Part shown: one piece after another, positions 42,246 to 63,965 of the stretch
Numbering within the stretch: position 1 is the stretch's first letter
Layout of the letters: every line of letters begins with the position of its first letter
Source of the DNA: Pectobacterium polaris
GTDB taxonomy: Bacteria; Pseudomonadota; Gammaproteobacteria; Enterobacterales; Enterobacteriaceae
DNA: 64,000 bases
Direction of reading: 5' to 3'
Assembly: GCF_002307355.1 (NCBI RefSeq)
Contig: NZ_CP017481.1
Coordinates: 4,402,001-4,466,000 of the forward strand
Translations under genes and position numbers: made by a program
Notes under the pieces: generated by a model
What the model was told of the DNA's origin: nothing
Databases searched by the model: none
What the model saw: only the letters and a program-made list of their open reading frames with translations

Positions 42246-42266
42246 ATCAGCGTTTCTCCGTTTTAG

Positions 42267-42346: not shown

Positions 42347-42437
42347 CCTTATCCACAGGTGTTACACAACTAACGAAGCCCAGCAGTGCGGGAACACTTA
42401 CTGGGCTTCTCACCACACCGTTATTAGGAGTAACGCT

Positions 42438-42629
42438 ATGGCTGATTCACAGTCTACCCAAACTCACCCCAAATTTATATGGCGCTTTCTGGCGCTGGGC
42501 ATGTCGTCTCGCCGCATTATTCGCATTGTCGCTACTACCGAGCACGAAGCACGGGAAAAATCCCCGTCTGGCTGTGTCATTGTTTTCGCTGGTCGCCTGC
42601 CCGTTCAGGAGGTGCGCTATGTTCGATAA
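42438..42629 (+). CDS. Icd-like small protein (host cell division inhibitor family)
   Basis: 63 aa. The segment FLALGMSSRRIIRIVATTEH and following EAREKSPSGCVIVFAGRLP match the short proteins annotated in P4-type islands as Icd/ash-like host cell division inhibitors. First gene of the small-gene cluster leading to the primase. AGGAGTAACGCT precedes the ATG. Functional name is from family resemblance. Confidence 0.7.
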   Translation: MADSQSTQTHPKFIWRFLALGMSSRRIIRIVATTEHEAREKSPSGCVIVFAGRLPVQEVRYVR

Positions 42630-42810
42630 CACCCCGTTAGAGCTGGAAGAAATTATCGACCAATGCCGCGCACTGGCCTACGCCGCTGTTAATACCGATG
42701 CGCCACAAGCACGTGAAATCCTGCTGTTTGTCCTGCAAGAACGTATCGATCACCTTTACCGCACCAGTCAGGCAGAACCAGCACAAGCGGAGGTGTCCCA
42801 TGTTGCGTGA
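42619..42810 (+). CDS. small island protein
   Basis: 63 aa from ATG 42619 (MFDNTPLELEEII), AGGAGG upstream inside the preceding gene. Helical and acidic (DQCRALAYAAVNTDAPQA). Overlaps its neighbours at both ends (42619 before the 42629 stop; 42800 start before its own stop), typical of the tight gene chain of P4-type elements. Function unknown. Confidence 0.6.
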   Translation: MFDNTPLELEEIIDQCRALAYAAVNTDAPQAREILLFVLQERIDHLYRTSQAEPAQAEVSHVA

Positions 42811-43036
42811 CTCTACGCTGTCTCAGGCAGCACAGCAGGCCGATCAGTTGTGCGTTCTGCTGCTGTTACTTGAACAGACTCACGAACAATTAAGTGAAGT
42901 CGATATGGCTACGGCGTTAGGGCTTGCCCGTGATCTATCGGCCAACCCTGCTTTATGGCTGCTGGATGAGCAACAAAAGCAAAGCCGATGCCGTGAAGGT
43001 GATGCCCCTGAAAAAACGGAGGTGCCCCATGCCTAA
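42800..43036 (+). CDS. small island protein
   Basis: 78 aa from ATG 42800 (MLRDSTLSQAAQQ), GGAGG upstream. Leucine-rich helical protein (LCVLLLLLEQTHEQLSEVD). Overlaps both neighbours. No recognised domain; conserved position ahead of a primase gene suggests a replication or regulatory accessory. Confidence 0.6.
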   Translation: MLRDSTLSQAAQQADQLCVLLLLLEQTHEQLSEVDMATALGLARDLSANPALWLLDEQQKQSRCREGDAPEKTEVPHA

Positions 43037-43238
43037 CCAGACGCCAACCATTACCGCCACGCTGCAAGTTACCCCTGATTTCACAGGGCGCGTGCTGGTG
43101 TACGTGAAGAACGGCAGAGCCACCAGCGACCGCCGACTATTCGATGATGAGCTGGTGGCCGGACTCGATACCTTTCTGGAGCTGGCAACCCGTGCAGGCT
43201 ATCAGGTGATTTCACCGGACACAGGAGCGGCAGCATGA
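43029..43238 (+). CDS. small island protein
   Basis: 69 aa from ATG 43029 (MPNQTPTITATLQV), GGAGG upstream. Beta-rich (TGRVLVYVKNGRATSDRRLF), then helix (ELVAGLDTFLELATRAGY). Overlaps the previous gene by 8 bp and the next by 4 bp. No recognised family. Confidence 0.6.
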   Translation: MPNQTPTITATLQVTPDFTGRVLVYVKNGRATSDRRLFDDELVAGLDTFLELATRAGYQVISPDTGAAA

Positions 43239-43462
43239 GCAAGCAGGTTTATGAGATTTGTTGCCAGGTTGAGGAAGCGTTACACCACGTCAAAAAATCG
43301 AAAGAGATCCTTGATATGTGGCTGAACCTCATCCCAAACGATGAAGCCCGCGAGGGTGAATCTATCCGCGTCGCTATCGTGATGGATCAGGTTATCGAAG
43401 CCATTTCCTGTCTGAATAAGGCGGAAGCTATGGGCAGCAACAAAACAGGAGAGGCGCGATAG
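43235..43462 (+). CDS. small island protein
   Basis: 75 aa. ATG overlaps the previous stop by ATGA. Coiled/helical (YEICCQVEEALHHVKKSKEI). Ends with the stop shared with the primase start (TAGTG). Function unknown; part of the primase operon. Confidence 0.6.
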   Translation: MSKQVYEICCQVEEALHHVKKSKEILDMWLNLIPNDEAREGESIRVAIVMDQVIEAISCLNKAEAMGSNKTGEAR

Positions 43463-46155: not shown

Positions 46156-46174
46156 GATTGCTTCACACACGTAG

Positions 46175-46293
46175 AAAGTATGTTGGTTCAGTTAGTTCAG
46201 TTGGTTCAATGTGTAAAGACGGTTGTTATGTAAGGAAAATATTTTCCATGTTGAACCAACACTGAACCAACAAAGGGGCATTTTGAACCAACA
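46175..46293. repeat. iteron block A (candidate origin)
   Basis: Three TTGGTTCA-like units (TGTTGGTTCA, AGTTCAG, TTGGTTCA), GTGTAAAG, then TGAACCAACA three times in inverted orientation. It lies 20 bp past the primase stop. The first 53 bp (46175-46227) match the reverse complement of 52267-52319 at 48 of 53 positions. In phage P4 the alpha protein acts at ori and crr made of similar repeats. Confidence 0.75.
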
Positions 46294-46324
46294 GCGATAA
46301 ATGGCTGAGGGGAGGAAAACAACC

Positions 46325-46762
46325 ATGACAGCACAAATTTCCGCTTATGGTCGCCTGGTGGTGGACGTGCAGAGCCGCACCACCAGCAACGGTAACACGA
46401 TGAGTTTCACCCGCATGGCGGTACCGCTGCCCTGTCAGAAGGCAGAGAACGGCGAGGCCACTTTCTGGCTGGCGGTGACAGTCTTTGGCAAACAGGCGGA
46501 TGCGCTGGCGAAACACCAGAAAGGCGACATGATGAGCGTATCGGGCAACATGCAGATCACCCAGTGGACAGACGGCCACGGTAACGCACAAACCGGCTAC
46601 CAGGTGATTGCCGACAGCGTGGTAAGCGCCCGAACGGTGCGACCCGGAGGCCGTAAAGGTGCCGCAGGCCAACCCACTGACGCGCTACGCCGCGCACACG
46701 AACAAAGCGTACAGGGTAATAGCCACCTTACACCTGATTTCAGCGATGACGCGCCATTTTGA
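46325..46762 (+). CDS. ssb: single-stranded DNA-binding protein
   Basis: 145 aa from ATG 46325 (MTAQISAYGRLV) with GGAGGAAA upstream; the 46301 ATG has no ribosome binding site. OB-fold core (GNTMSFTRMAVPLP ... FWLAVTVFGKQAD) and an acidic tail ending DFSDDAPF, the SSB partner-binding tip. Sits just after the iteron block, consistent with island replication. Confidence 0.9.
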   Translation: MTAQISAYGRLVVDVQSRTTSNGNTMSFTRMAVPLPCQKAENGEATFWLAVTVFGKQADALAKHQKGDMMSVSGNMQITQWTDGHGNAQTGYQVIADSVVSARTVRPGGRKGAAGQPTDALRRAHEQSVQGNSHLTPDFSDDAPF

Positions 46763-46770
46763 GGAATACC

Positions 46771-47226
46771 ATGATGACAGAGAACACACGTATCGTATTG
46801 CGTCTTAAGCGTGCCACCGTGAACAAGGTAACAACGCCGGGACATGTCACAGCCAAATCTTCACAGGCAACAGACAAAACAGGTAATAAGCAGCACCGCA
46901 AGAACCGGAAAAAACTCGAACGGCTGGTTTTACTCTGGCCGGATGCGTTCAATCTGGAAAATCCCCGCCCGTTGGCTATCGGGATCGATAAGGCGCTGGC
47001 GGCAGATATTGAACGTCGCCAATTATCCGGGGCGGGCTCGCTGCGTTTTTCGCTGGGGTTGTATGTCCACCGCTCTGCCTACATCAAAGCGCTGGCCGCT
47101 GGTGGGCAACGCTACGACCTGAACGGCAAGCCTCTGGGGGAAGTCACCACCGAACAGCAGGAGCGTGCCAGAGCGCAGCGCAAGCAGAAAACCGCCCTGC
47201 GCACAGAGGATGCAAAATGCGCCTGA
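46771..47226 (+). CDS. ProQ/FinO-domain protein
   Basis: 151 aa from ATG 46771 with GAGG 6 bases upstream. Residues ~40-115 carry a ProQ/FinO RNA-binding domain (LVLLWPDAFNLENPRPLAIGI, YVHRSAYIKALAAGGQRYDL, NGKP). Basic N-terminal and C-terminal extensions. Such proteins on mobile elements bind structured RNAs and may control replication or conjugation genes. Confidence 0.9.
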   Translation: MMTENTRIVLRLKRATVNKVTTPGHVTAKSSQATDKTGNKQHRKNRKKLERLVLLWPDAFNLENPRPLAIGIDKALAADIERRQLSGAGSLRFSLGLYVHRSAYIKALAAGGQRYDLNGKPLGEVTTEQQERARAQRKQKTALRTEDAKCA

Positions 47227-48298: not shown

Positions 48299-49267
48299 AT
48301 GGCAATGAAAGAAAATACTGAACTGTACGGCGTTTATGACGCTGGCTTTAATCATCGATTTGACGGTATCACGGTACTGAAAGCGTCGATTACCCGCGAC
48401 GCCAAAATGATGGAGCACCCACTGGAGGACGGCAGCACCATAACCGACCATCGCATTATTCTGCCTATTGAGATTGAGATAGCGGCGCTGATCCCTGTGG
48501 CGCAATCTAACAGCCTCTATACCGAAATCCGGCAGGCGTTCACCAGCACTGAGCTATTTTCAATAAACACCCGATCCGGTGTTTATCCCAGCATGGCAAT
48601 GTCGGCCATGCCGCACGAAGAAGACCCTACGAACGCCGACATGATCCCTATCGTGTTGCGATTCAAGGAAACGATTCTTGTAGAAACGCAGTACCAGGCA
48701 TTGCCGCCGAGAAAGGTTAAATACCCAAAGGATTCCAGCACCGTTAATCGAGGTGAACAAAAGGCCGAATATGCACGGCATTGCGGTGTAAGCCGTCAGA
48801 CAGTGTACGACTGGGTGAAAAAGGGTGAGGTCATTCTTTCTGGCGTGAAGATCGATGTCACAGCGACCGAACAGAAACGTGCTGGTGGAAATCATGCCAG
48901 TGATTCGCCGTGGCCACATCGCACAATGGAAATGACGTGGAAACAGGCCGCTGAATGGGTGAGCCAACACGATGGAGAAAAGCCTGATGAGGATAATCAT
49001 GACGATCGATTAACTCGTCTGGCGGCTGCTGCGGATGAGTTGGGCTATGGCGTTGATGGCAGCGAATACGACGAACAGGAATCCGTAATTGCTCTATACA
49101 TGGACGGCAGTGTACGACACGAATTCTACGATGAAGGATGCGTGGATGCGGCGATCACTTTTTTGCGGGCAGAACTTTTCTATGTCGCATTCCGTGTTGA
49201 TGATGAGGCTGATTGGAGTCCTCAGGGATTATCAGCGTTGTGCTTACGGCAAGGCAAGAAAATATAA
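48299..49267 (+). CDS. Dit-like tail domain fused to Nu1-like HTH
   Basis: 322 aa. Residues ~1-125 look like the N-terminal domain of Dit-like baseplate/tail proteins (FDGITVLKASITRDAKMMEH, PLEDGSTITDHRIILPIEIE). Residues ~155-190 (AEYARHCGVSRQTVYDWVKKG) match the HTH of Nu1-type small terminase subunits. The C-terminal ~100 residues are acidic. The two parts are usually separate proteins, so a recombined gene is likely. RBS not strong. Possibly part of a satellite packaging or interference module. Confidence 0.6.
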   Translation: MAMKENTELYGVYDAGFNHRFDGITVLKASITRDAKMMEHPLEDGSTITDHRIILPIEIEIAALIPVAQSNSLYTEIRQAFTSTELFSINTRSGVYPSMAMSAMPHEEDPTNADMIPIVLRFKETILVETQYQALPPRKVKYPKDSSTVNRGEQKAEYARHCGVSRQTVYDWVKKGEVILSGVKIDVTATEQKRAGGNHASDSPWPHRTMEMTWKQAAEWVSQHDGEKPDEDNHDDRLTRLAAAADELGYGVDGSEYDEQESVIALYMDGSVRHEFYDEGCVDAAITFLRAELFYVAFRVDDEADWSPQGLSALCLRQGKKI

Positions 49268-51323: not shown

Positions 51324-51761
51324 CTATGTTTTTTCTATATAGCGCAGTATCACATCAAACGATTTCTGCGCAGCCCTGACGCGTAGTGCCACTTCCCGAT
51401 CCTTCAGAACAATAGCAATAAGTGCCGCCGATATTTCACGCAATAATATTGATATCAGATAGCTCTCTTCATCACCTTCTATACGCACCCTTCTTTCAAT
51501 TGGTAAGGCTGCGATGATAGCAGGCCTCAGAGCTTCTGATTTAGCTTGTGACGCACGGGAGTCAGAGCGAAGCCAGCGAAAGATCTGCTGCCGATTGTTG
51601 TAGATAGCCTTACAATCAGCAACACCGTTGTTTTCTATCCGTCTCAGGCGAATAGAATCATTACCGCCTAACAAGAAGAATTGCTTCGTTATCTCGATCG
51701 CTACCTGTTCCTGCCCATCTTTCACCGCCCAATTTTCAACTTCAGCTTTTAAGCGATCCAT
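51324..51761 (-). CDS. YdaT-like / CII-type regulator or toxin
   Basis: 145 aa from ATG 51761 (MDRLKAEVENWAV), GGGAG upstream. The pattern VENWAVKDGQEQVAIEITKQ followed by FFLLGG and, further on, NNRQQIFRWLRSDSRA and ALRPAIIAALP matches YdaT of the Rac prophage. YdaT-family members are CII-like phage regulators that inhibit host growth when overproduced. Diverges from the DUF4224 gene. Confidence 0.8.
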   Translation of the reverse strand: MDRLKAEVENWAVKDGQEQVAIEITKQFFLLGGNDSIRLRRIENNGVADCKAIYNNRQQIFRWLRSDSRASQAKSEALRPAIIAALPIERRVRIEGDEESYLISILLREISAALIAIVLKDREVALRVRAAQKSFDVILRYIEKT

Positions 51762-51856
51762 TGTGTATCTCCCAGTCAATTGATTTGGCTTAATCAGATT
51801 TCAATTGCCTTTGACTGTTTCAATACCCAAGCGACATAAGAAAATGGTCAATAGAT

Positions 51857-52445: not shown

Positions 52446-52466
52446 TGGGGGTATCATTGGGGGTAT
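52446..52466 (+). repeat. 21-bp G-rich repeat, right copy
   Basis: TGGGGGTAT, CA, TTGGGGGTAT; 19 of 21 identical to 38376-38396 in the same orientation, about 14.07 kb apart. It may mark the right end of the island or an integrase-binding region of the second element. Confidence 0.65.
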
Positions 52467-52704
52467 ATATAAAAACACAACAAAAATAAAACAATATAAA
52501 TCAAGTCATTAAATCTTACGTTTCACTCCTGTAGGGTTTTTTTATGCCTCAAATTCAGTGAATTAGCTATAAATTCGCTGATTTCAGTCAACCAGACTCT
52601 ACCGACATCTCCGTACATCAAGTAGGATTTGTTGGTATAAGTGATGGTACAAGCCCGTTCAATGAATTCTTATACCGACAGCCAGCGTATGCCGACACCT
52701 CAAT

Positions 52705-53916
52705 ATGGATATCAGCTATCCCACTCATCGATGCAAAAGTCAGAAGAGCCAACCAGAAGACAAGGCTTATAAACTTACCGATGGTGAAGGGATGCATCTG
52801 ATGGTCCATCCTAATGGCTCAAAGTACTGGCGTCTGCAATACCGCTTCGACGGCAAACAGAAAACGCTGGCGCTTGGGGTATACCCTGAAATTACCCTGT
52901 CTGAAGCCCGGCAACGCCGTGATGAAGCCAAACGCCAGATTGCTACCGGGACTGATCCCAGCGAACATAAGAAGGTGGATAAACAACTACGCCAAACGCT
53001 CGTTGATAACACCTTTAAAGCTATCGCATTGGAATGGCATGAATATAAGCGCCCTAACTGGTCGAAGGGTTACGCTGAAGACCTGATGGAAGCGTTTGAG
53101 AATGACATCTTCCCTGATATCGGCAAACGCCCTATTGCTGAGATTAAGCCGCTGGAAATGCTAACCTCACTGCGCAAACTTGAAAAACGTGGCGTACTCG
53201 ACAAGTTGCGTAAGATTCGCCAAGCCTGTAATCAGGTGTTCAGCTATGCGATTGTCACTGGCCGGGCGGAAAACAACCCAGCATCAGAACTGGCAAGCGC
53301 CCTTCCCCCACCAAAAGCCACGCACTACCCTCACCTGCTGCCAGATGAACTGCCGGATTTTCTACGCGCATTATCAACTTACTCGGGTAGTAAGGTCACA
53401 CAACTTGCTACACGTATCCTGATGCTTACCGGCGTTCGCACTATCGAATTACGGCAAGCAGAATGGAAGGAGTTTGATTTTGAAAAAGGGCTCTGGGAAG
53501 TACCGAAAGAACGCATGAAAATGCGTCGCCCTCACCTCGTGCCCCTTTCCGATCAAGTGATCGATGCTCTACAACAGCTCTATGCCGTTACTGGACGCTA
53601 TAATCTGGTTTTCCCTGGACGTAACGACATCACCAAACCGATGAGTGAAGCCAGTATTAATCAGGTACTGAAACGGATTGGTTATCACGGCAAAGCGACA
53701 GGCCACGGCTTTCGCCACACCATGAGCACCATACTGCACGAACAAGGCTATAACACCGCCTGGATTGAATTACAGCTTGCCCATGTGGATAAGAACACGA
53801 TTCGTGGAACGTATAACCATGCGCAGTATTTGGAGCAGCGGCGCGGCATGTTGCAGTGGTATGGGGATTATGTTGATGGGCTGGAGCATGAGGATGTGAA
53901 GAGAAGGTTGTGGTGA
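52705..53916 (+). CDS. second P4-type integrase, N-terminus frameshifted
   Basis: 403 aa as read from ATG 52705. From residue ~20 (KAYKLTDGEGMHLMVHPNG) it matches the first integrase closely; catalytic R (TGVRTIELR), HxxR (HGFRHTMS) and Tyr (GTYNHAQY) are present. The first 18 residues do not match. In the +1 frame upstream, ISAIPLIDAKVRRA is the normal arm-domain start, and one missing base in GCCAACCAGAAGAC would join the frames (A-K-P-E-D-K). The gene is therefore probably damaged. Followed by a terminator. Confidence 0.85.
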   Translation: MDISYPTHRCKSQKSQPEDKAYKLTDGEGMHLMVHPNGSKYWRLQYRFDGKQKTLALGVYPEITLSEARQRRDEAKRQIATGTDPSEHKKVDKQLRQTLVDNTFKAIALEWHEYKRPNWSKGYAEDLMEAFENDIFPDIGKRPIAEIKPLEMLTSLRKLEKRGVLDKLRKIRQACNQVFSYAIVTGRAENNPASELASALPPPKATHYPHLLPDELPDFLRALSTYSGSKVTQLATRILMLTGVRTIELRQAEWKEFDFEKGLWEVPKERMKMRRPHLVPLSDQVIDALQQLYAVTGRYNLVFPGRNDITKPMSEASINQVLKRIGYHGKATGHGFRHTMSTILHEQGYNTAWIELQLAHVDKNTIRGTYNHAQYLEQRRGMLQWYGDYVDGLEHEDVKRRLW

Positions 53917-53947
53917 TGGGGAAACGAAAGTAGGCAGGAAGATAATT

Positions 53948-53970
53948 AGCCGGAGTTGTTCCGGCTTTTA
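53948..53970 (+). terminator. terminator of the second integrase
   Basis: AGCCGGA (53948-53954) and TCCGGCT (53960-53966), a 7-bp stem with a 5-base loop, then TTTTAC, 32 bp after the integrase stop. Confidence 0.8.
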
Positions 53971-53995
53971 CACAATGGCATGTAGTTCAATGATT

Positions 53996-54027
53996 TCAAC
54001 GGGATCGCTCTAGAGAGATCCCGTTGA
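53996..54027. repeat. perfect inverted repeat
   Basis: TCAACGGGATC (53996-54006) and GATCCCGTTGA (54017-54027), 11 bp, with GCTCTAGAGA between, which contains CTCTAGAG. Possible protein-binding site or structured RNA; no T-run. A further 8-bp inverted repeat CATAGTGG/CCACTATG lies at 54204-54232. Confidence 0.5.
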
Positions 54028-54275
54028 GTAGGAATATCCAAGCTCATATCAGAAGATAACGCTGAGATATCAGATGAATTAGCCGCTACTCAGCAGGACA
54101 CTGATCTACGAAAAAGTGAGGCTAAATCTGTCGGCTGAACTCACAGCACTGGCCAGCCCATAAAAGAGAAGTAAGGCTGCCATGCGAAAGTGGACTCATA
54201 GCCCATAGTGGGTTAAAAATTCGGCCACTATGAAAGTAGGACTAAATCCAGATTGCATTCATCAGCATGAGCAGG

Positions 54276-55160
54276 CTATACCGTCTGATAAGGCACATTT
54301 CCTATGGTTGTAATACGGGTGAATTCAGCATCAATGGCTTCAGCTTGCAACCGCCATTCGGCAAAACGTTTCTGGCGCTTTTTGCTCTCATCAAGCGACT
54401 TTTCAAGTAGGTTCAGTTCATCATGCAGCTTGATATAGCCAGCAAAAAATGTCGGAATAAAGTCATCTGCATCCAGAGTTTCAAGAGTTTTCTCTCGTTG
54501 GTCAGTAAAATTATTCACCATTTTAATCACTGCTTCAGCAAACATTTTTTCACGCTTATGTTGTTCCCATGTGTCCCAGGCTTCCATTGCCAGCCCAAGT
54601 ACGGACAATGCACCATTCAACCCTTTAGCCAGATTTACCGCCCCCCACGGGTTAAATTTCAGAATTTTTCCCAGATCAACCCCCACCATTTTTGCCAGTG
54701 AGACAACACCATCGCGTGCGGCGATAACCGTAGTGTTATTGATGACCTTGCTTTTGACAACGTAATCCAGCCCCTGCTTACCCATAGCAGTCAGGTTGCC
54801 GTTGTAGTGGCTGATATCAGCCTGATAACCTATTTCCATGCGTTGCAGCGCCTGAGCAACAGTGCGCAATCGGCGTTCAAACTCATTATCTAAACGGGTA
54901 GAGATAACAACACCTTTGTCGCCCACCTCACGTTCAAAAAATTCGGTGTAAGTTTCCAGGCTCAATCCTTTGGCCTGCAGGATCAGATCGCTGAAGTAAT
55001 TGACGACGAACTCTCTCAGTTTAATTCGGGTTTCTGAAATGTTAACCTGCATTGTCCCCATCTCTTTACTCATGCGTTGATGGATCGTGTTAAGGTCGGA
55101 GACTTCCTGTGTAATGCGCTCGTCATTCTCAATCGCCACTGGTAGTTGGCGAGTCAGCAT
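54276..55160 (-). CDS. leoA: leoA-like dynamin, 3' part (helical domain)
   Basis: 294 aa, mostly helical, starting ATG 55160 without a good ribosome binding site, 8 bp after the stop of the GTPase gene. The frame is open upstream of the ATG and reads SVIRD directly before MLTRQLPVAIEND, suggesting it continues the GTPase gene through a -1 shift. Helical parts (QMRELREFVVNYF..., LNLLEKSLDESKKRQKRFAE) fit the middle/neck domain of a dynamin-like protein. Together with the upstream part (279 aa) the length, ~573 aa, is that of LeoA. Confidence 0.7.
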   Translation of the reverse strand: MLTRQLPVAIENDERITQEVSDLNTIHQRMSKEMGTMQVNISETRIKLREFVVNYFSDLILQAKGLSLETYTEFFEREVGDKGVVISTRLDNEFERRLRTVAQALQRMEIGYQADISHYNGNLTAMGKQGLDYVVKSKVINNTTVIAARDGVVSLAKMVGVDLGKILKFNPWGAVNLAKGLNGALSVLGLAMEAWDTWEQHKREKMFAEAVIKMVNNFTDQREKTLETLDADDFIPTFFAGYIKLHDELNLLEKSLDESKKRQKRFAEWRLQAEAIDAEFTRITTIGNVPYQTV

Positions 55161-55168
55161 GTCGCGAA

Positions 55169-56008
55169 TTACGCTTCTTTTTGTCTCTTCCCCAGCGCAA
55201 GTACACCGCCGCTACGCTCAATTTTTTCGCTGGTGGCCTGCTGCAACGTACTAATGTGTGATAAGGCGCGAAACTTATCGGGATTACCCAGCCAGTATTC
55301 GGTTCCCATATCAAACGGGTTCGCTGCCACAGCAACAATGCTTAACGCATCACGCTCCTGCGGGGTCAAAGCAATCAAATCCTGTAAACGAGAAGCCACG
55401 TTCTCGCGCTTAACATTCGCGTTTGAGTGATAATCAGCCTCATCTTCAACGTCGGCGACTTCGTCAAAGCGGCTGAGCACAAAGACAGTGCGATCTAGTA
55501 AATTCAGCGTACGGAACAACCACTCCAGATCCTGTTTATGGCTCTCTTTGATCGGGTTAGTGGAGTTCATCACATACAGCACCAGATGTGCTTCACTAAC
55601 GTACTTCTTAGTCATATCTTTATATTTTTCAACGGACTGGACATCTTCATTGAACTGTTCTTTAAAGCCAAATAGCCCTGGAGTATCAATCAGCACAAAA
55701 TCGGAACCCACATCGTAAATTTTGACTTCGTTGGAGGATTCCTGATGGCTGATTTTCATGCTGGCTTTATCTAGCTTCTCCATCCAAGCGGCTGCAATAG
55801 AGGTTTTTCCTTCGGAAAAGCCGCCAATTAATGCAATGTGCAGCTTGCCATTGGCTGCACTCTCTTTAGCTGCCTGCAGCTTATGAAATAATTTGGGGTC
55901 CATCTGCACGCCAACGGATTCCCCCTGTTGCAGGAAATCACTAAGACTGTTTAGCAATGCAATATTCTGTGTTTGTTGAGTTTTAAACACATCAAGTGTC
56001 TTTTTCAT
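55169..56008 (-). CDS. leoA: leoA-like dynamin, 5' part (GTPase domain)
   Basis: 279 aa. GTPase motifs: G1 GGFSEGKTS near residue 63, G3 DTPGLFG near residue 110, and SRFDE in the G4 position near 180. Start overlaps the leoBC stop as TAATG. The frame closes at TAA 55169-55171, just after a run of five A on the coding strand; a -1 shift there joins the next gene. Likely LeoA of the Eleos/LeoABC dynamin system, split in this sequence or expressed by frameshifting. Confidence 0.75.
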   Translation of the reverse strand: MKKTLDVFKTQQTQNIALLNSLSDFLQQGESVGVQMDPKLFHKLQAAKESAANGKLHIALIGGFSEGKTSIAAAWMEKLDKASMKISHQESSNEVKIYDVGSDFVLIDTPGLFGFKEQFNEDVQSVEKYKDMTKKYVSEAHLVLYVMNSTNPIKESHKQDLEWLFRTLNLLDRTVFVLSRFDEVADVEDEADYHSNANVKRENVASRLQDLIALTPQERDALSIVAVAANPFDMGTEYWLGNPDKFRALSHISTLQQATSEKIERSGGVLALGKRQKEA

Positions 56009-58209
56009 TATTTTGCTCCTGATGTTTCAATGCTGACGGACAGTTGGCGTAGTTTTTGGCTGGCGTCTTTTAAAATATTGTTGGTATGGGAAGCTTGGCG
56101 CACGGGCTCCTGCAGCATGGCTTTTAACTGTTCGACCTTCTCATCAAGCTCGGGGAAGGCGCTTTCCAACCCATCACTGATGGAAGCTTTAATTTTGCGT
56201 GCAACGTTACTCAGGTTTTCATCTGCGGACTGACGTTGCTGAGACATTTTGTAGCTGGAGCTGAAGAAGCTGCGCACCGCTTTATAAAATGCGAATACTA
56301 GCCCGGCTAGCGCAGGAGCCAGTACGATCCATCCTGCGGGATTCCAGAACAGTAGTGCGCCTCCGGCAAGCGTTGCCAGTAAACTGGTGAGTTTGATGCC
56401 GCTATCAATGTCGATTCTCACATCAAACTGCCCCTCAAATTTATGCTGTTGCAGCTTGGAATAGGTTGCAAGTATCTCTTTGGCATATTGCTGAAAGCGA
56501 CGAATGACCTCTTCGGTTTCATCTTTAAAAATATCCAATTCACACTTAAGAATACCCGGCAGTTCTTTTTCCAGCTCAGCATGCTGCAGTGTGAGGCAAT
56601 CTTCTAGTTCAGTTTTGAAACGATCGTTGCTGATGTCGTTATTAATCTCGGCATAGACGCGCTGACGGGCGCGGTTTTTGAATTTTTCTACCGCTTCTTC
56701 GCCTTGGTCTGCCAGACGCGATTTCAGCGATGCAAGCGACATATCCAGCAACTGGTGGGCATTCTGCATTTCCTCGTCCAGTTGCTTTGACAGTTTTCCG
56801 TAAGTTTCTTTTTGCAGATAGGTAATTTCCTTGGTGGCTTCTTCCACGGTTTTACGCGCTTTACTGACGTTAGAACGAGTGATTTTTTCTTTGCTGTTAG
56901 TCACTAGTTTCTGTGTCAGCAAGTTCAAAAAACTGCTCAGTCCTGTCTTATCGAGCACCTCATCTTTTTCAAAGTTTTCTAGCAATTTGCTACGTTTTTT
57001 AAGATTTTCCGACCCTGGAACAAAGTGTTCTGCCACACTCAGAAATGCAGGCATTGCACTGAGTGTGCAACTATCGCGGTAATTATCACCAAGCTGCTCA
57101 TGCATTTTTGTATTCAGATCGACCAAGCTTTGCTCTTCGTCAGGACTTAGCAACACTGGACGATTTAGCTGCATCGGATTGGTAATCCGCTTGTTAAACA
57201 ACGTCCAGACTTCTGTCTGAGCATTAAGGTGTGCTTTGATCTTTTCCAGCGTACCTGGATTATTTTCATCACCTTTTTGCGGCGCTGCTGCTTTGCTGGT
57301 GACGTAGAACACAGCATGTGCTTTTTCTACCGCCTGCTGGATTTGCGCCAGCACTGTACTCTCTTTACCTTCGATGCCGGGTACATCCAACAAGGCAAAA
57401 CGCTGTTGATTAGCTTCAAAGGGATAGAGTGTAGTGTCCATGGTGAAATCGGACACCCCCGTACCAATGATTTCACCATCTGCCAGATGTGCCAGTTCGG
57501 CAAATTTTGCCAGTTGTATACTTTGCAACTGCCGTAGCTCTGCGGTTTTCGCATCGCAATCAATCTGCTGCCTTTCTAGATCTTTGAGCTCAGCGGCTTT
57601 TTCAATATTTAGTGCGCGTTGCTTCACAAGTAAGTGAGCATGCTCTTTTTGTTCCGGTGTTTTTCGCCATAAATTGAGTAACTTCTGCCATAAAGAGCCA
57701 AGCTGTTGCTGCGCGAGAATAAGCGCACTGATAGCATTGATTTGCTGATGTAGCGCCGTTTCTCGGTCAATGTACTGTGAGTTGATGACTTCTATCGTCT
57801 GGGACAGTTCGTTGGCTATTTTTTGATTGTCGTCCAACGACCACTGTAATTTTTCGATATCGCTGTCAGTAAGATGATACCGTTGCTGAAATTCACGGAA
57901 GGCTTTCTGGCGCTGTTGTTTACTCTCTTCTTTCAACAAAATACGCAGCGTTTCAATGACCGTCGATTTCCCTGCATTAGTTTCACCATAAAAGGCGATG
58001 GTGAATCTGTCCCACTCAGCATTTCGTCGAAGACTATCAATATTATCATTTAAGGCCTTACAAAAGGCCTCCAGTTTCTTACGGGCATCTTCATTCGTTT
58101 TTTTCAGCGTCTCATCGGTAGTATCCTGAGTGAGATTGCTGATAATTCTCCCAACCTCCTGAGATACCCTTTGATAAAGCGAATGTGGCGTTTCAACGTC
58201 AACTAACAT
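56008..58209 (-). CDS. leoBC: LeoBC-like dynamin GTPase
   Basis: 733 aa from ATG 58209 (MLVDVETPHS) with AAGGATG 7-8 bases upstream; the longer frame to 58272 lacks this. GTPase G1 GETNAGKST, G3 DVPGIEG and FNK in the G4 place, a long coiled-coil insertion (~110-260), a second helical part, and a paired hydrophobic segment near residues 640-680 (LLATLAGGALLFWNPAGWIV, LAPALAGLVFAF) for membrane contact. Matches a dynamin-like LeoB/LeoC fusion. Eleos (leoA-leoBC) is a reported anti-phage system; LeoA was also linked to toxin release in enterotoxigenic E. coli. Confidence 0.78.
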   Translation of the reverse strand: MLVDVETPHSLYQRVSQEVGRIISNLTQDTTDETLKKTNEDARKKLEAFCKALNDNIDSLRRNAEWDRFTIAFYGETNAGKSTVIETLRILLKEESKQQRQKAFREFQQRYHLTDSDIEKLQWSLDDNQKIANELSQTIEVINSQYIDRETALHQQINAISALILAQQQLGSLWQKLLNLWRKTPEQKEHAHLLVKQRALNIEKAAELKDLERQQIDCDAKTAELRQLQSIQLAKFAELAHLADGEIIGTGVSDFTMDTTLYPFEANQQRFALLDVPGIEGKESTVLAQIQQAVEKAHAVFYVTSKAAAPQKGDENNPGTLEKIKAHLNAQTEVWTLFNKRITNPMQLNRPVLLSPDEEQSLVDLNTKMHEQLGDNYRDSCTLSAMPAFLSVAEHFVPGSENLKKRSKLLENFEKDEVLDKTGLSSFLNLLTQKLVTNSKEKITRSNVSKARKTVEEATKEITYLQKETYGKLSKQLDEEMQNAHQLLDMSLASLKSRLADQGEEAVEKFKNRARQRVYAEINNDISNDRFKTELEDCLTLQHAELEKELPGILKCELDIFKDETEEVIRRFQQYAKEILATYSKLQQHKFEGQFDVRIDIDSGIKLTSLLATLAGGALLFWNPAGWIVLAPALAGLVFAFYKAVRSFFSSSYKMSQQRQSADENLSNVARKIKASISDGLESAFPELDEKVEQLKAMLQEPVRQASHTNNILKDASQKLRQLSVSIETSGAK

Positions 58210-58582
58210 AAAGCATCCTTTCAAAGCACAACATATTCTATATGTAATGATGATGAGCAAACCCATATTCACTGAACATCAAGTCCGGTGATATGTTCGG
58301 GGAGCATTTCAGGGCGTTTGTTAAAATAATTTGCCCTATACGCAGAAGCCTCCATCTGTATCTTGTAACAGTTTGAGTTGGTGTTTTTTTTAAAAATACC
58401 TAATAAAACAACGGCAGATCAGAGTTTTTCTTTAATGAAACTGGTCGCAGTGACGTTTCAAATATCAGCTTCTGGCACAGAACAGCACTAAAAAACACTC
58501 CAACAGCAATGTACCAAACGCAACTGTTCATGACAGATTAAATATCTATTCAATGTCTGCATTTTTCACTCTGCCCGACAGA

Positions 58583-58615
58583 AGAAAATCGGCTCAGTGC
58601 AATCTCACTGAGCCG
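58583..58615 (-). terminator. terminator of the monooxygenase gene
   Basis: GGCTCAGTG (58591-58599) and CACTGAGCC (58606-58614), 9-bp stem (10 with the flanking C-G), 6-base loop, ATTTTCTTC on the minus strand past the stem. The rest of 58210-58582 is an AT-rich gap holding the leoBC promoter region, with no other gene seen. Confidence 0.85.
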
Positions 58616-58627
58616 GCAACGTTTATG

Positions 58628-60061
58628 CTATTGAACTCGCCAGTCGCTAAAGTAATGACCGATCGCGGAAGGTTGGTCGAGAGGAGCGGTGGCGGCTATA
58701 TAGCCATCTGGCCGAACTAGCAGGTATTGATCAGAATAGGGGCTACTTCCCGTTTCAACATGCAGGACAGTGACGATATTAGGCAGTGATGCAGGCACCG
58801 TCGCCGTACCAACGATGAGCAGACTGTAATTACGATAATTTAAATGTGAGTAAATTCTGTCTGGCTGACTAGAGTGAGAATCACGCCACATAAAATCATG
58901 CAGCCTTTCGCCAACACGCCCGTCTGTTCCGTAGCGAACGCCCATACCCGTGATGTAACCCGCACGTTTTTCGACAATCTTGACGTAATCATCGGCGTGG
59001 GTGCCTGTCTCTGAGGTTTTGGTTGAACGCACGAGTTCCGCTGAGGTTTTTACGACTTCCAACGCGATCGCTTTTCGCTCTGTTTCGTAAGTCTGTAGCA
59101 GCGTTTGGGGCGCATGATGATGGGTAATCATCGCTATTTTCCAGATGAGGTTAAATGCATCGGCCAACCCCGTATTTAACCCTTGCCCACCATTCACTGA
59201 GTGAATATGGCTAGCATCACCAGCGATAAATAGTTTATCTTCAAGGCTATAGCGTTCTGCTACAGACTCTTTAACCGAGAATTGCGAGTACCACTCAATC
59301 GACTTGAAACGCAGACGGTGTGGTTGCAGAGCATGATTAATTTTATCTATCGCCTGCTGTTGCGTGAAGTCTTCACTGTCCATCTGGATATAGAAACGAT
59401 CAATCTTACCTTCACGTGGTATCCAGGCGACATCGGCTGTTTCTGCCTGAAAAACAATAATTTCCGGTACTTTGGGGAAATCAGTTTCTATTTCGCCATC
59501 AATCACTGCCCAGGTAATTTGCGGCCGAGTGATCTCAAACGGGATAGCAAAGTGTTGGCGCACAAACGATCGTGAACCATCTGCACCAATCAAATACCGG
59601 GAACGGACGGTCTCACCGCTGGTGAGCGTGGTGAGGCATCCGTCTTCCTCCAGCACAATATCTTCCACAGAGGTATTGCGGCGCACGGCGCTCTTTAGTT
59701 CGGTGAGCTTATTATCGAGCGCTTGTTCCACATAAGCCTGACCAATCATTAAAAAATGCTTGTGAAAACAGCCTTCTAAAGCATCCCACCAGGTAGATTG
59801 GCGTGAAATAAATTTACCTTTTGACCAGACTGAGCTGGTATTACAGGCTTTGCCCAAGGGATAAAGCTCGTCGAATAAACCGATAATTTCAAACAACTGC
59901 AAGCTACGAGCGTTTAACGCATCAGCACGGCCTACCGTCAGTGGCCCTTGTGATTTATCGATAATGACGGTGCTTAAACCCGACAGCTGAGCAAGATAGG
60001 CACAGGCCAAGCCGACAGGCCCCGCACCGATAATCATGAGATCAACATCTTGTGGTTTCAT
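58628..60061 (-). CDS. class A FAD-dependent monooxygenase
   Basis: 477 aa. FAD-binding GxGxxG (IGAGPVGLACAYLAQ) at the N-terminus, DG motif (LIGADGSRSFVRQ) near residue 160, and GD motif (LFIAGDASHIHSVNGGQGLN) near 280 identify a PHBH-fold aromatic or polyketide hydroxylase. Start overlaps the dioxygenase gene stop by ATGA, so the two act in one pathway. Substrate unknown; the operon is separate from the DltABC-like genes by a terminator. Confidence 0.9.
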   Translation of the reverse strand: MKPQDVDLMIIGAGPVGLACAYLAQLSGLSTVIIDKSQGPLTVGRADALNARSLQLFEIIGLFDELYPLGKACNTSSVWSKGKFISRQSTWWDALEGCFHKHFLMIGQAYVEQALDNKLTELKSAVRRNTSVEDIVLEEDGCLTTLTSGETVRSRYLIGADGSRSFVRQHFAIPFEITRPQITWAVIDGEIETDFPKVPEIIVFQAETADVAWIPREGKIDRFYIQMDSEDFTQQQAIDKINHALQPHRLRFKSIEWYSQFSVKESVAERYSLEDKLFIAGDASHIHSVNGGQGLNTGLADAFNLIWKIAMITHHHAPQTLLQTYETERKAIALEVVKTSAELVRSTKTSETGTHADDYVKIVEKRAGYITGMGVRYGTDGRVGERLHDFMWRDSHSSQPDRIYSHLNYRNYSLLIVGTATVPASLPNIVTVLHVETGSSPYSDQYLLVRPDGYIAATAPLDQPSAIGHYFSDWRVQ

Positions 60062-60936
60062 GACGGTTGCACCAAATGTGGATTATTCAGTGGCTGTTTA
60101 GCATGGATATGCACGCGGCGTAGATGACGGCCACTCTGGCTAGCATAAGATTCACGGCCATGTAGTAACGAGTAGTTATCTGCAATCGCAATATCGCCGC
60201 TTTGCCACTGATGAGCATACTGAACCCGTGGGTCATATAAGGCATGTTGCAAACTACTGAGTAATTGCTCTTGTTCTTCAGGTTCAATACCTGAGAAATG
60301 ATAAGTCGATGGGTTCAAAAATTCTTTATCGCCAGCAATAGGCGGTTCACAAAAACGAATGACGGGATGAGTACGGTAAGGGTGTTGTTCGATAATAGGA
60401 GCCTGCGCGGTACTGCTGTATAACTCGACTGCACGCTGATACTGACCTGTTGCACGCTGCCACAGTGCTTTGGTTTCGGGTGACGCCAGACGTAACGCCG
60501 TGGTGGTACTCGAAAACGTGGTTCGCCCTCCCTGACCTTCGCCAATAGCTGATACGCATTGAAAGACTTGTAATTCCGGCACCGTTTTAAGGTACATGCC
60601 GTCCCAATGCAAGGGGACATAGTTGTTAGCAAAGATATGGTCGGTAGCATCGGGTTGTTCAACCAACTCCAACACGGCGCCAAACGGCCATTGCATAATG
60701 TCGCCAATGGCTTCGCAGTATGTTGTTAAATTTTCTGCACTCGTAAAGCTATCAAAGCCCCGTAGTATCACTAACTGTTGGTTTTCTACCAATGTACGCA
60801 GCCAGGTAGGTGATAACTCGCCAATGTGTACGCCTAACTGTTTAGGCTCAATACGTACACCAAAATGACAGGTTTCACCTTGAGAATTGGTTAGAGGCTG
60901 ATAATCAAATCGATCTTCTAAAGTGAATGCGTCCAT
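60058..60936 (-). CDS. TauD/TfdA-family Fe(II)/2-oxoglutarate dioxygenase
   Basis: 292 aa from ATG 60936 (MDAFTLEDRFD), with GGAG 7 bases upstream; the 60960 ATG has a weak site. Metal-binding HxD (LHWDGMYL near 115), distal His (LLHGRES near 255) and 2-oxoglutarate-binding Arg (HLRRVHI) are present. Hydroxylates or desaturates a small organic acid or amino acid. Pairs with the flavin monooxygenase. Likely secondary metabolite modification. Confidence 0.88.
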   Translation of the reverse strand: MDAFTLEDRFDYQPLTNSQGETCHFGVRIEPKQLGVHIGELSPTWLRTLVENQQLVILRGFDSFTSAENLTTYCEAIGDIMQWPFGAVLELVEQPDATDHIFANNYVPLHWDGMYLKTVPELQVFQCVSAIGEGQGGRTTFSSTTTALRLASPETKALWQRATGQYQRAVELYSSTAQAPIIEQHPYRTHPVIRFCEPPIAGDKEFLNPSTYHFSGIEPEEQEQLLSSLQHALYDPRVQYAHQWQSGDIAIADNYSLLHGRESYASQSGRHLRRVHIHAKQPLNNPHLVQPS

Positions 60937-61109
60937 TTTACGTCTCCGTGTATTATCCATTGTTGAAAGATCTTTTCAGATAATATCGGCAACAAATATT
61001 CAACACCACGGATACAATTATAATAATTAGGGTGATTTGAATATAGAATCACTGCCCTCCTATTCTTCACCAATATCTGATGATGTAATCGACCTTAATA
61101 AAAACCCAT

Positions 61110-61139
61110 AAAAAAACCCCAGATAAACCTATCCGAGGT
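61110..61139 (-). terminator. terminator of the DltABC-like operon
   Basis: On the minus strand ACCTCGGATA pairs with TATCTGGGGT (one G-U and one mismatch) around a 4-base loop, followed by TTTTTT. Plus-strand positions 61130-61139 and 61116-61125, 37 bp past the carrier protein stop. Confidence 0.85.
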
Positions 61140-61175
61140 CTTTAAACAGCCGCAAAAACCGTCGCCGTTTCAGGC

Positions 61176-61397
61176 TTAGCCGCGGTTCTCTTCGATGTAG
61201 CGAGCCAAGTCCGCAGGGGTCTTCAGAACGGTGGCGACTTCGGTTGGTGGGATCACGCAGCCGTAAACGTCCTGCACTTCCAGCACCAAGTCGACCGCCA
61301 GAATAGAGTCGAGAATATCGGACTCAATTAGCTCATCGTTAAAGCCCACTTTACGGGATAAGATCTTTTCAAACAGCGCGAGTATTTCTTGTTCCAT
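61176..61397 (-). CDS. DltC-like acyl/peptidyl carrier protein
   Basis: 73 aa from ATG 61397 (MEQEILALFEKILS), CAGGAAA seven bases upstream; an ATG one codon earlier (61400) is possible. The phosphopantetheine serine lies in DILDSILAVDLV. The fold (VGFNDELIES ... VYGCVIPPTEVATVLKTPADLARYI) is that of D-alanyl carrier protein or a similar PCP. It would carry the aminoacyl group activated by the adjacent adenylation enzyme to the MBOAT protein. Confidence 0.88.
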   Translation of the reverse strand: MEQEILALFEKILSRKVGFNDELIESDILDSILAVDLVLEVQDVYGCVIPPTEVATVLKTPADLARYIEENRG

Positions 61398-61413
61398 CAT
61401 TTTTCCTGAGTCA

Positions 61414-62847
61414 TTAGATCGTGCGGGCATGGGTATCCAGCAGCTTACGGTCGATTTTGCCGTTAGGATTAAGCGGCAACGCATCTTTGATAATAATTTG
61501 GGAAGGTACCATGTAAGGCGGAATCACCTTCGAGAGCGATGTTTTGATCGCTTCTGGCGCTAAGTTCGTCACGCAGAACGCTGCAATACGTAAAACGCCA
61601 CCGCCCGATTTCATCAGCGGCAGAACAACCGCTTCGCTGATGTCGGAGATCGCCAGCAGGCGATTTTCAATCTCGTTGATTTCAATGCGGTAACCATTCA
61701 GTTTGATCTGGCTGTCATTGCGGCCCTGACAGTACAGCAGCCCGTCCTCGTAGCCCAGGTCGCCAGTTCTGTAGCCCCGGAACGCTTCGCTCTCCCGATT
61801 CAGCAATTTCTCCGCATTCTCTTTCGCCAGCCCGAGGTAGCCACGCATGACGTTTTTGCCCCAAATGATCAGCTCACCCTCAGACGTAATTTCCATTCTG
61901 GAGTCCGGCATCATCGCGCCGACCGGCAGCAGATCGTTTTCACTGTGCAGGATTTCATCGGTGATTTCGATGACGGTGGTCGCGATAGTCGCTTCCGTTG
62001 GGCCATAGGAGTTGAGAATTTTGGCGTGTGGGAAGCGACGGCGTAACTGTTTTACCAGCGCTTTGTTGAGCACTTCGCCAATGAACACGAAGACGTTGAG
62101 TTCAGGTAAATACTCACTGTTGAACTGGGGTGAGAGCAGCCTCTGGTAGGCGAAAGAAGGCGTTGAAACCCAGACCGAAACACCGTTGTCTTTCAGGCGA
62201 TCGAGCCAGTTTTCTGCCGCGATATCCTCTTTTGCATTCAGAACGATGTGCCCCCCAGTAGCCAGATTCGCCAGCAGCGGAATTAGAGAGAGATCGAAGC
62301 TGAACACTGCATGGTTCATCAGCACCGGCACGTCTGGCAGCGAAAAGTCCTGGCGCACCCACTTCATGAAGTGCCACAGGCTTTCACGCCCGATCTGCAC
62401 GCCTTTAGGCTTTCCAGTGCTGCCGGAGGTGAACATGATATAGGCAAGATCTTGCTCGACTAACGCCTGCCCTGCCTCACCGGTAGCAATGAACTGTCTG
62501 GTAGCCACATCGTAATAATAAGGGGCATTCGCCAGGTGGCAAATCTCGTTAAGCCGCTCCTGAGGATAGATGCAATCCACCGGAATATACGGGATGTTAT
62601 GCAGCAGACAGCTATAGATAGCCACGGCGAATTCCGCCTGCTGATGGCCGTATAACACGACCGGTGCGCCATCGAGCTGCTGGCAGTGCTGATAACGACG
62701 CGACCAGTCTGTCACGGCGGCGGATAGCTGTTGCCAGGTCATCGCGTCATCGCTGCCACTAATCGCCAACTGCTGTGGGTTCGCGGGGTCGAGTAATGCC
62801 GCCCGGAGGAAATCTTGTAGTTCCTGAAGCTCTGAGTGAAGTTTCAT
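61414..62847 (-). CDS. DltA-like amino acid adenylating enzyme
   Basis: 477 aa ANL-superfamily enzyme. ATP motif FTSGSTGKPKG near residue 145, core A5 SYGPTEAT near 285, TGDLGY near 375, GRNDSQIKLNGYRIE near 400, and the catalytic Lys in NPNGKIDR near 470. Architecture matches DltA (D-alanine-D-alanyl carrier protein ligase). In characterised DltA proteins a Cys in the FCGE segment shapes the D-Ala pocket; here it reads FIGEVL, Ile for Cys, so the activated amino acid may differ. Overlaps the MBOAT gene by ATGA. Confidence 0.88.
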   Translation of the reverse strand: MKLHSELQELQDFLRAALLDPANPQQLAISGSDDAMTWQQLSAAVTDWSRRYQHCQQLDGAPVVLYGHQQAEFAVAIYSCLLHNIPYIPVDCIYPQERLNEICHLANAPYYYDVATRQFIATGEAGQALVEQDLAYIMFTSGSTGKPKGVQIGRESLWHFMKWVRQDFSLPDVPVLMNHAVFSFDLSLIPLLANLATGGHIVLNAKEDIAAENWLDRLKDNGVSVWVSTPSFAYQRLLSPQFNSEYLPELNVFVFIGEVLNKALVKQLRRRFPHAKILNSYGPTEATIATTVIEITDEILHSENDLLPVGAMMPDSRMEITSEGELIIWGKNVMRGYLGLAKENAEKLLNRESEAFRGYRTGDLGYEDGLLYCQGRNDSQIKLNGYRIEINEIENRLLAISDISEAVVLPLMKSGGGVLRIAAFCVTNLAPEAIKTSLSKVIPPYMVPSQIIIKDALPLNPNGKIDRKLLDTHARTI

Positions 62848-63965
62848 AGTGGGGACATTCCGCTAAATATGTAGAGGGAGGCCGCGGCGCTTGCCAGCGT
62901 CAGAATTCGACCGATGAACACAATAACCGGATGGTGTAGACAATTGCTCAGTGCCGGACTGCGTTTGGCTGACCATTGCAGCATGTTGTGAGCAACGGAA
63001 ATGGCGCCAAACAGCGCGCCGCTGATAACATAGTGTCGTTCAAGCCCGTTCCATGCCCCCATACAAAACAGGGTGCAGAAGATGCCAATATTCTGTGCCA
63101 ACGTTTTGTTCTGTCGGAAAAAGTCGAGCTTCATCAGATTCATATAAATCGGCATAAAGACCACGTCCCTCAGCCATTCAGACAGGCTGATGTGGAAGCG
63201 ACGCCAGAAGTCCTGCGGGTTTTTCGCCAGAATAGGCAGATTGAAGTTCGCCGGGATATTCAGACCAAATAAACGCCCAGCCCCGATAGCCATATTGCTG
63301 TAGCCAGCAAAATCAAAGTAAAGGTAGGCGCTGTAAGCCAGCGACATTACGACACCCACGCTTAACGTAAACGGGCGATGGCTCCACGACTCAATCACCA
63401 GATTATTGATCAGCATAGCGAATAAAAATTTCTGAATAATGCCGGTAAAAATCTGCTCCATCGCCACTAAAAACTGTTCACGGGTCATCGTGAAGACGGG
63501 TTTATTAATGTCATTAAGCCATGTCCGCCAGCGATACATCGGGCCGGCCAGAATAATAAAAGGCATAAAGAGGTAGCAGAAATAGTGCAGGAAATTCCGA
63601 CCATCTTTTTTGCTGCGATAAAGCAGGACATCAATGGCGCGGAAGGTCATAAAGGACAGGCCGATCATGCCCCAGTGGTTGTTAAGGTGTAATTTCACCA
63701 AAAACAGCGGGAGCAACGTCAGGCTGACCGCCTGCCAGGTTTTTAACCACCCCTTCTCTTTTAAGGTGACGAGAATATAAAAGCTCAGGAACACCGCCAC
63801 GGGAATAACGTAATCCCCCTGGAAAATATATCCCCAGCCGAATACCGCCAATACGGAGAAGGCAGATAAATACGTCAGCCGATAACTGAATACGCGATTA
63901 ACCAGCGCAAACAATAATGCTGATGAAAACAGAAGGAAAAAAAACATTCCGGAGCTGTACATCAT
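62844..63965 (-). CDS. DltB-like MBOAT acyltransferase
   Basis: 373 aa, about ten membrane helices. The MBOAT core LAKNPQDFWRRFHISLSEWL precedes RDVVFMPIYMNL, and the conserved His lies in the segment around NGLERHYVISGALF. DltB relatives move D-alanyl groups from a carrier to an exported acceptor. The operon reads on toward the carrier protein; an upstream partner such as DltD would lie outside the window (the last 35 bp hold none). Confidence 0.9.
   Translation of the reverse strand: MMYSSGMFFFLLFSSALLFALVNRVFSYRLTYLSAFSVLAVFGWGYIFQGDYVIPVAVFLSFYILVTLKEKGWLKTWQAVSLTLLPLFLVKLHLNNHWGMIGLSFMTFRAIDVLLYRSKKDGRNFLHYFCYLFMPFIILAGPMYRWRTWLNDINKPVFTMTREQFLVAMEQIFTGIIQKFLFAMLINNLVIESWSHRPFTLSVGVVMSLAYSAYLYFDFAGYSNMAIGAGRLFGLNIPANFNLPILAKNPQDFWRRFHISLSEWLRDVVFMPIYMNLMKLDFFRQNKTLAQNIGIFCTLFCMGAWNGLERHYVISGALFGAISVAHNMLQWSAKRSPALSNCLHHPVIVFIGRILTLASAAASLYIFSGMSPL

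What the first reader, a model, noticed from the sequence alone, without database searches (positions are those of the whole stretch)
54276..58209. Eleos-type dynamin defence operon beside the island
Three tightly coupled minus-strand genes encode dynamin-like GTPase parts: a 733-aa LeoBC-like protein with G1, G3, a coiled insertion and a paired hydrophobic segment, then a ~573-aa LeoA-equivalent in two pieces. This matches the LeoA plus LeoBC composition of the Eleos anti-phage system and of the LeoABC dynamins of enterotoxigenic E. coli. Location right after a damaged P4-type integrase fits a defence island.
Basis: partly seen in the sequence, partly recalled or inferred. Interest (0 to 1): 0.75.

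Follow-up and report, generated by a model that had tools for sequence, protein, structure and literature searches.

The report
Eleos dynamin pair, LeoA broken
This is a copy of a known bacterial anti-phage gene pair that makes two membrane-shaping proteins, here with one partner gene broken; comparing relatives suggests that the other partner carries a long helical arm built into its engine domain.

Summary
Window 56008-58209 (-) encodes a 733-aa LeoBC (PADLOC E 1.6e-161). Overlapping it by one base, LeoA lies in two ORFs (55169-56008, 54276-55160) that match LeoA models collinearly. LeoA is broken rather than naturally split: an intact 577-aa copy, identical outside the junction, exists in another assembly. 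The operon sits beside a P4-type integrase with an out-of-frame N-terminus, at a variable site next to tRNA-Arg that is near-empty in some congeners and holds type I restriction genes in others. AlphaFold2 and Foldseek support a dynamin fold.

The less ordinary part is family-wide. Between P-loop and switch I, LeoBC carries a predicted two-helix hairpin (2 x 56 residues) with an amphipathic tip. P-loop-to-G3 spacing is 192 in 112 of 118 proteins. Two long variants lengthen both arms. The ETEC-type LeoC/LeoB split falls in this hairpin, with LeoC's anchor near where the tip would be. The same genome has such a split set elsewhere.

Verdict: new member of a known kind, probably inactive here; the hairpin is a testable explanation for the 'split dynamin'.

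The parts
56008..58209 (-). LeoBC, 733-aa dynamin-like GTPase (P0001)
   Evidence: PADLOC LeoBC E 1.6e-161; AlphaFold2 mean pLDDT 82.9; ten best Foldseek hits are bacterial dynamins
57964..57987 (-). G1 P-loop GETNAGKS, residues 75-82
   Evidence: sequence; G75, E76, T77, G80, K81, S82 invariant in 50 homologues
57490..57867 (-). hairpin insertion in the G domain: predicted helices 115-170 and 185-240
   Evidence: AlphaFold2 secondary structure, mean pLDDT per block 87-94 in the arms and 72-85 over residues 161-190; P-loop-G3 spacing 192 in 112 of 118
57643..57696 (-). hairpin tip SLWQKLLNLWRKTPEQKE, residues 172-189, amphipathic
   Evidence: lower entropy than most of the arms; helical moment p 0.006 for residues 172-184, one of several windows tested without correction
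57376..57387 (-). G3 DVPG, residues 275-278
   Evidence: D275, P277, G278 invariant in 50 homologues
56260..56382 (-). paired hydrophobic segment around NPAGW (about residues 610-650), putative membrane paddle
   Evidence: sequence; G626, W627 invariant; AlphaFold2 confidence mostly below 50 here
55169..56008 (-). LeoA piece 1 (279 aa): GTPase domain and start of the helical domain
   Evidence: PADLOC LeoA 1-265/559, E 3.9e-102; Pfam Dynamin_N and DLP_helical
54276..55160 (-). LeoA piece 2 (294 aa): rest of the helical domain
   Evidence: PADLOC LeoA 272-556/559, E 1.1e-62; DLP_helical 72-340/340; 100% identical to residues 284-577 of P0124
52705..53916 (+). P4-type tyrosine integrase, 403-aa ORF, expected N-terminus in another frame
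   Evidence: Pfam Arm-DNA-bind_3, Phage_int_M, Phage_integrase; three-frame view
52537..52597 (.). scar of an older insertion, shared with the near-empty site of G013
   Evidence: 61-base match at 84% to L046
38186..38262 (+). tRNA-Arg(TCT) at the left edge of the variable site
   Evidence: ARAGORN; in 4 of 4 congener sites aligned (L046-L049) the left-flank match runs through this tRNA

Best explanation
The locus is an Eleos (LeoBC + LeoA) defence operon carried at a variable site next to tRNA-Arg, most likely inactive in this genome because LeoA is broken. Intact, it probably works as a paired dynamin: LeoBC and LeoA hetero-oligomerise through their GTPase domains, insert hydrophobic paddles into the membrane and, on phage-caused membrane disturbance, assemble and remodel or breach it, so that the infected cell yields few phages. 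LeoBC adds a hairpin inserted between the P-loop helix and switch I; its amphipathic tip probably touches the membrane (or LeoA) and links that contact to the nucleotide pocket. In ETEC-type sets the chain is opened in this hairpin and LeoC ends in a membrane anchor near where the tip would be. Shown: gene identity, operon layout, break, variable site, predicted fold, insertion position and length behaviour. Inferred: defence activity, membrane action, tip function. I hold the identity at about 0.95 and the mechanism at about 0.4.
Against: No phage assay. Foldseek TM-scores are low (0.15-0.28 by query for the ten best), and the VIA list is led by translation GTPases that share only the G domain. 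Two other stretches of LeoBC are also length-conserved (distant set: 14 of 21 and 19 of 21 measurable, 15 of 36 lacking the motifs; the hairpin 31 of 36), so fixed length is not special to the hairpin. Heptad periodicity of the C arm is not significant (p 0.11-0.22). The tip is only moderately conserved (median pairwise identity 33%). The short Chryseobacterium form does not shorten both arms equally (-20 and -13). In two of three split LeoC the anchor begins 113 residues after the P-loop, not 92.
Confidence: 0.6

Rival explanations
1. The break in LeoA is an assembly or sequencing error, and the strain has a working Eleos operon.
For: Both pieces are identical to P0124 outside the junction; the integrase ORF a few kb away also shows a frame change, as indel errors would give.
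Against: The LeoBC cluster P0001 is on 10 contigs but intact LeoA P0124 on only 3, which would fit breakage in several assemblies, though cluster counts are indirect. The four flanking ORFs of 300-477 aa at 58628-63965 are open.
Confidence: 0.35
2. It is not an anti-phage system but an aid to vesicle or toxin release, as proposed for LeoABC of ETEC.
For: LeoA was described as a factor for toxin release and vesicle secretion (PMC4159319, passages).
Against: The operon is patchy and lies at a site that holds restriction genes in four congeners; relatives in RIT691 and E. coli TC24 (annotation) sit beside type I restriction genes. I did not test for secreted toxins; most of the window was not scanned, and one scanned ORF (51324-51779) hits Pfam YdaT_toxin.
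Confidence: 0.15
3. LeoA works as two separate chains, a second split dynamin like LeoC/LeoB.
For: Piece 2 begins with its own ATG eight bases after piece 1 ends; split dynamins exist in this family.
Against: Among 60 hits to piece 2 no near-identical stand-alone protein appears (best score 69% identity over 94%; highest identity 86% over 60%); an intact copy exists (P0124); the best 120 of 3835 LeoA hits are all 558-577 aa, although the tool's length limits leave out short ones.
Confidence: 0.05
4. The hairpin docks LeoA or another protein rather than the membrane.
For: Cj-DLP1/2 pair through added assembly elements (PMC6104087, passages); the tip is amphipathic, not transmembrane (best 19-residue hydropathy in the insert 0.77, against 1.8-2.0 for three LeoC anchors).
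Against: In split LeoC a membrane anchor lies near where the tip would be (from the P-loop, 92 residues in the ETEC-like LeoC and 113 in two others; 89 to the tip here).
Confidence: 0.35

Closest known systems
Eleos anti-phage system (PADLOC LeoA, LeoBC; called a dynamins-like defence system in PMC11811056, passages)
   Same: Two adjacent genes, LeoBC then LeoA, same strand, profile matches over nearly the full length
   Different: LeoA is broken here; the PADLOC LeoBC model has 601 positions, so I infer that much of the hairpin falls in insert states
LeoABC of enterotoxigenic E. coli (PMC4159319, passages)
   Same: LeoA family, tandem dynamins, same gene order
   Different: ETEC-type sets split LeoBC into LeoC (with a C-terminal anchor, already described in that paper) and LeoB; here it is one chain. 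An ETEC-type set lies elsewhere in the same genome, its LeoA 82% identical to the ETEC-like LeoA of L042 and 28.5% to P0124
Cj-DLP1/Cj-DLP2 of Campylobacter jejuni (5OWV, 5OXF)
   Same: Operon-paired bacterial dynamins; structural hits
   Different: No G-domain hairpin in the passages seen; pairing goes through a Campylobacter-specific element
Heterotrimeric G-alpha subunits
   Same: Structural hits at E about 1e-4; a helical insertion after the P-loop helix (site recalled, from no call)
   Different: No dynamin neck or paddle; a helical domain, not a two-helix hairpin; analogy only

Membership tests
Eleos system | LeoBC component by profile | tested here: met
   PDLC03841 E 1.6e-161, positions 11-599 of 601
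Eleos system | LeoA component by profile | tested here: met
   two pieces, positions 1-265 and 272-556 of 559
Eleos system | adjacent, co-oriented genes | tested here: met
   one-base overlap of LeoBC stop and LeoA start
Eleos system | both genes intact in this genome | tested here: not met
   LeoA in two frames; intact copy elsewhere. So: member by ancestry, probably not a working system here
Eleos system | protection against phages | not testable with these tools
   needs an experiment
Dynamin superfamily | GTPase motifs G1, G3, G4 | tested here: met
   key residues invariant in 50 homologues
Dynamin superfamily | helical neck/trunk next to the G domain | tested here: met
   AlphaFold2 helices 439-523, 528-587, 651-732; dynamins as the ten best Foldseek hits; Pfam DLP_helical in LeoA
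Dynamin superfamily | membrane paddle | tested here: inconclusive
   conserved hydrophobic pair, but model confidence mostly below 50 there
ETEC-type LeoABC | LeoBC split into LeoC with C-terminal anchor and LeoB | tested here: not met
   single 733-aa chain in the window; the split form lies at G000:C1:20050-22442
Heterotrimeric G-alpha | homology to G-alpha over the insertion | tested here: inconclusive
   Foldseek E about 1e-4; Pfam G-alpha E 1e-4 in P0115, under its cut-off

The most novel reading that the evidence does not exclude
LeoBC is a dynamin whose G domain carries, at a site like that of the G-alpha helical domain, a coiled-coil antenna of near-constant length with a membrane- or partner-sensing tip that gates GTPase activity and so triggers defence; the puzzling LeoC/LeoB gene split of ETEC is this antenna cut near its tip and re-anchored by a transmembrane helix.
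Probability: 0.35. Interest if true: 0.65.

Novelty: new member of a known kind. Interest (0 to 1): 0.42.

Why it matters
The locus itself adds one more, probably decayed, Eleos copy. The comparison offers a concrete answer to a question left open in 2014, why LeoC and LeoB are separate chains (PMC4159319, passages), and points to the hairpin tip as the part to test for how dynamin-based defence senses infection. Two Leo sets in one genome, one fused with broken LeoA and one split with intact LeoA, make a natural comparison.

Tried and rejected
Rejected: natural two-chain LeoA. Rejected: clean att repeats around integrase plus Eleos; no shared 9-base word between 52450-52700 and 58450-58700 or between 53900-54280 and 58280-58700; CCTGTAGGG of the tRNA end recurs at 52528 among other short words, so the element's ends are not defined. 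The LeoBC family search in 196 genomes rings in 194 of 196 and in 14 of 14 controls, because weak GTPase matches pass; I used only the strong rows (G000, G012, G102). No LeoBC match in 50,697 phage records. The phylum sample gave 1 of 398 genomes, G000 itself, at E up to 1e-20 with at most two candidates scored in the rows shown: rarity only. A 'distinct fold' claim from the VIA list was dropped because shared G domains fill it. Limits of the hairpin counts: 12 of 126 proteins lacked a P-loop or G3 and were dropped, 5 more were skipped for lack of G3 or the switch-I motif, the tip pattern was misplaced in 13 of 111 rows and absent in 2, and for Enterococcus I read the tip by eye (offset about 120, script 107), 28 and 29 of 118 lacked the control motifs; many of the 118 are close relatives; the 14 sequences were chosen by me and all have spacing 192. 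PADLOC named none of three neighbours on the Raoultella plasmid and not L043:3380-4018. Papers: searches showed no description of a G-domain hairpin in LeoBC (listings and passages only; the library lacks most subscription papers). The original Eleos paper is recalled, not read. G008 (48-kb site) was not read; L044 (G012) was fetched but not examined. The organism of the window was not identified.
Full report
Observation. From ATG 58209 the first encodes 733 aa; its stop shares a base with the start of the second. PADLOC and NCBIfam name LeoA, PADLOC names LeoBC, and Pfam gives GTPase and dynamin-helical domains. The two LeoA pieces match the LeoA models collinearly, with six model positions of PDLC03839 between them.

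The break in LeoA. The best hits to the two pieces are residues 1-279 (98.2%, no gaps over the length) and 284-577 (100%) of P0124, a 577-aa protein whose longest contig is 308,752 bases, so not the closed 4.83-Mb genome of the window (its source name is not shown). The RIT691 relative is intact (L038, 568 aa). LeoBC P0001 is on 10 contigs, intact LeoA P0124 on 3; whether other assemblies carry the break is open.

Setting. The genome is a single contig of 4.83 Mb and is unnamed; the organism was not identified. The left-flank gene (817 aa, 35334-37787, mechanosensitive-channel-like by eye) is in 25 of 25 genus genomes, own included; the right-flank FAD gene in 11 of 25. The distance between the two is 20.8 kb here and, computed from those coordinates, about 0.6 kb in G013, 0.8 in G011, 1.6 in G021, 3.6 in G024, 8.6 in G003, 8.5 in G019, 13 in G004, 23 in G014, 28 in G009 and 48 in G008. 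In the four sites aligned to the window (G013, G011, G021, G024) the left match runs through the tRNA. Six sites were scanned for ORFs of 150 aa or more (G024, G003, G019, G004, G014, G009; 50 ORFs). PADLOC finds type I restriction enzyme, methylase and specificity models in four members each; by sequence these are in G003, G019, G004 and G009, directly beside the FAD gene, where Eleos sits here. A 61-base scar at 52537-52597 recurs in the near-empty site of G013. Between tRNA and integrase lies a P4-like or prophage remnant with primase, SSB, anti-repressor, terminase-like and excisionase-like genes; of eight of its ORFs given to PADLOC only the primase has a hit, a weak one.

Spread. LeoA is found in 6 of 394 genomes sampled from the order, at seven loci. 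Five have a fused LeoBC-like ORF upstream (window, G667, G640, G593, G800) and two are split (second set of G000, G102). In 5,426 complete E. coli genomes, 4 hold a relative over at least 80% of the query, at 70.8% identity. Nine plasmid records match the protein, six of them over at least 80%; none of 50,697 phage records does; four contigs of a viral collection do, two over nearly the full length.

Fold. AlphaFold2 on 50 sequences gives mean pLDDT 82.9 and pTM 0.66. The ten best Foldseek hits are all bacterial dynamins, with low TM-scores (0.15-0.28 by query); hinged proteins with an extra arm may give that, so the claim rests on hits and profiles together. VIA-align rows that span the whole model include IniA (rmsd 35.7), Fzo1 (4.3 over 282) and Mfn1 (5.4 over 311), but the list is led by translation GTPases over the G domain alone. 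By sequence LeoBC has only marginal solved relatives (Irgb10, E about 0.001); LeoA matches 4AUR at 2.5e-64.

The hairpin. After the P-loop helix the model has helices 115-170 and 185-240, 56 residues each, around a tip helix 173-181. P-loop-to-G3 spacing is 192 in 109 of 114 proteins and in 112 of 118 after other loci were added; in the distant set it is 31 of 36. In LeoA it is 38 in 120 of 120. In 14 sequences that I chose, all with spacing 192, median pairwise identity is 18% in the arms, 33% in the tip and 67% in the flanking G core. Control: two other stretches of LeoBC are also mostly fixed, so constant length is shared rather than special. Length variants: L062 has +32 and +36 before and after the tip start, the Enterococcus lactis plasmid protein about +31 and +36 (tip read by eye), Chryseobacterium -20 and -13. 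A model of L062 (mean pLDDT 73.6) gives arms of 88 and 94 residues around a tip helix, as expected if both arms lengthen. Helical periodicity is significant in the N arm (p 0.002) but not in the C arm.

The split form. Aligned LeoC/LeoB pairs break inside this hairpin. The LeoC anchor starts 92 residues after the P-loop in the ETEC-like protein and 113 in the other two; the fused tip starts at 89. The ETEC paper already describes the anchor and places switch 1 in LeoC; my alignment puts the conserved SDFT-type stretch in LeoB, a difference that I cannot settle here.

Mechanism. Defence by paired dynamins acting on the membrane is the best fit to family knowledge, but no step of it is shown in this genome. 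The tip as membrane or partner sensor is inferred from position, amphipathicity (p 0.006 for 172-184, uncorrected) and the anchor of LeoC.

Verdict. Ordinary as a locus (new member of Eleos, LeoA broken), with a family feature that deserves a test.

Noticed in passing
G000:C1:18348-23380 (L043 4349-9381): Second Leo set in the same genome: WYL regulator, split LeoC (224 aa, C-terminal anchor), LeoB (573 aa) and intact LeoA (576 aa), beside ZorA/ZorB-like genes and a PDC-S26-like gene.
   Followed up: partly
P0112, P0115, L062 5164-8409: LeoBC fused behind an N-terminal DUF726 domain (alpha/beta-hydrolase by weaker DUF900 hits, GHSLG motif by eye); possible lipase-like effector.
   Followed up: partly
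window 38413-47226: P4-like element after tRNA-Arg: second integrase-like ORF (409 aa, by eye), anti-repressor, 897-aa primase, SSB.
   Followed up: partly
window 48299-49267: 322-aa ORF that matches tail fibre families in its first half and a terminase small subunit family in its second.
   Followed up: no
window 51324-51779: ORF called YdaT_toxin by Pfam but CII-like activator by PHROGs.
   Followed up: no
L062, L063, L064, L065: Contigs of a viral collection carry LeoBC relatives, two nearly full length and followed by a LeoA-like ORF; whether they are true phages or islands is unclear.
   Followed up: partly
L040 8001-9631: Helicobacter bizzozeronii LeoBC relative is broken and seems to lack most of the hairpin.
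   Followed up: no
L057 493-4826: On a Raoultella plasmid the Leo pair follows a TerY-C, PP2C and InaA-kinase-like set by annotation; PADLOC did not name these.
   Followed up: partly
L059 4058-8835: On a Chryseobacterium plasmid a WYL gene precedes a 707-aa LeoBC and LeoA, with a shorter hairpin.
   Followed up: partly
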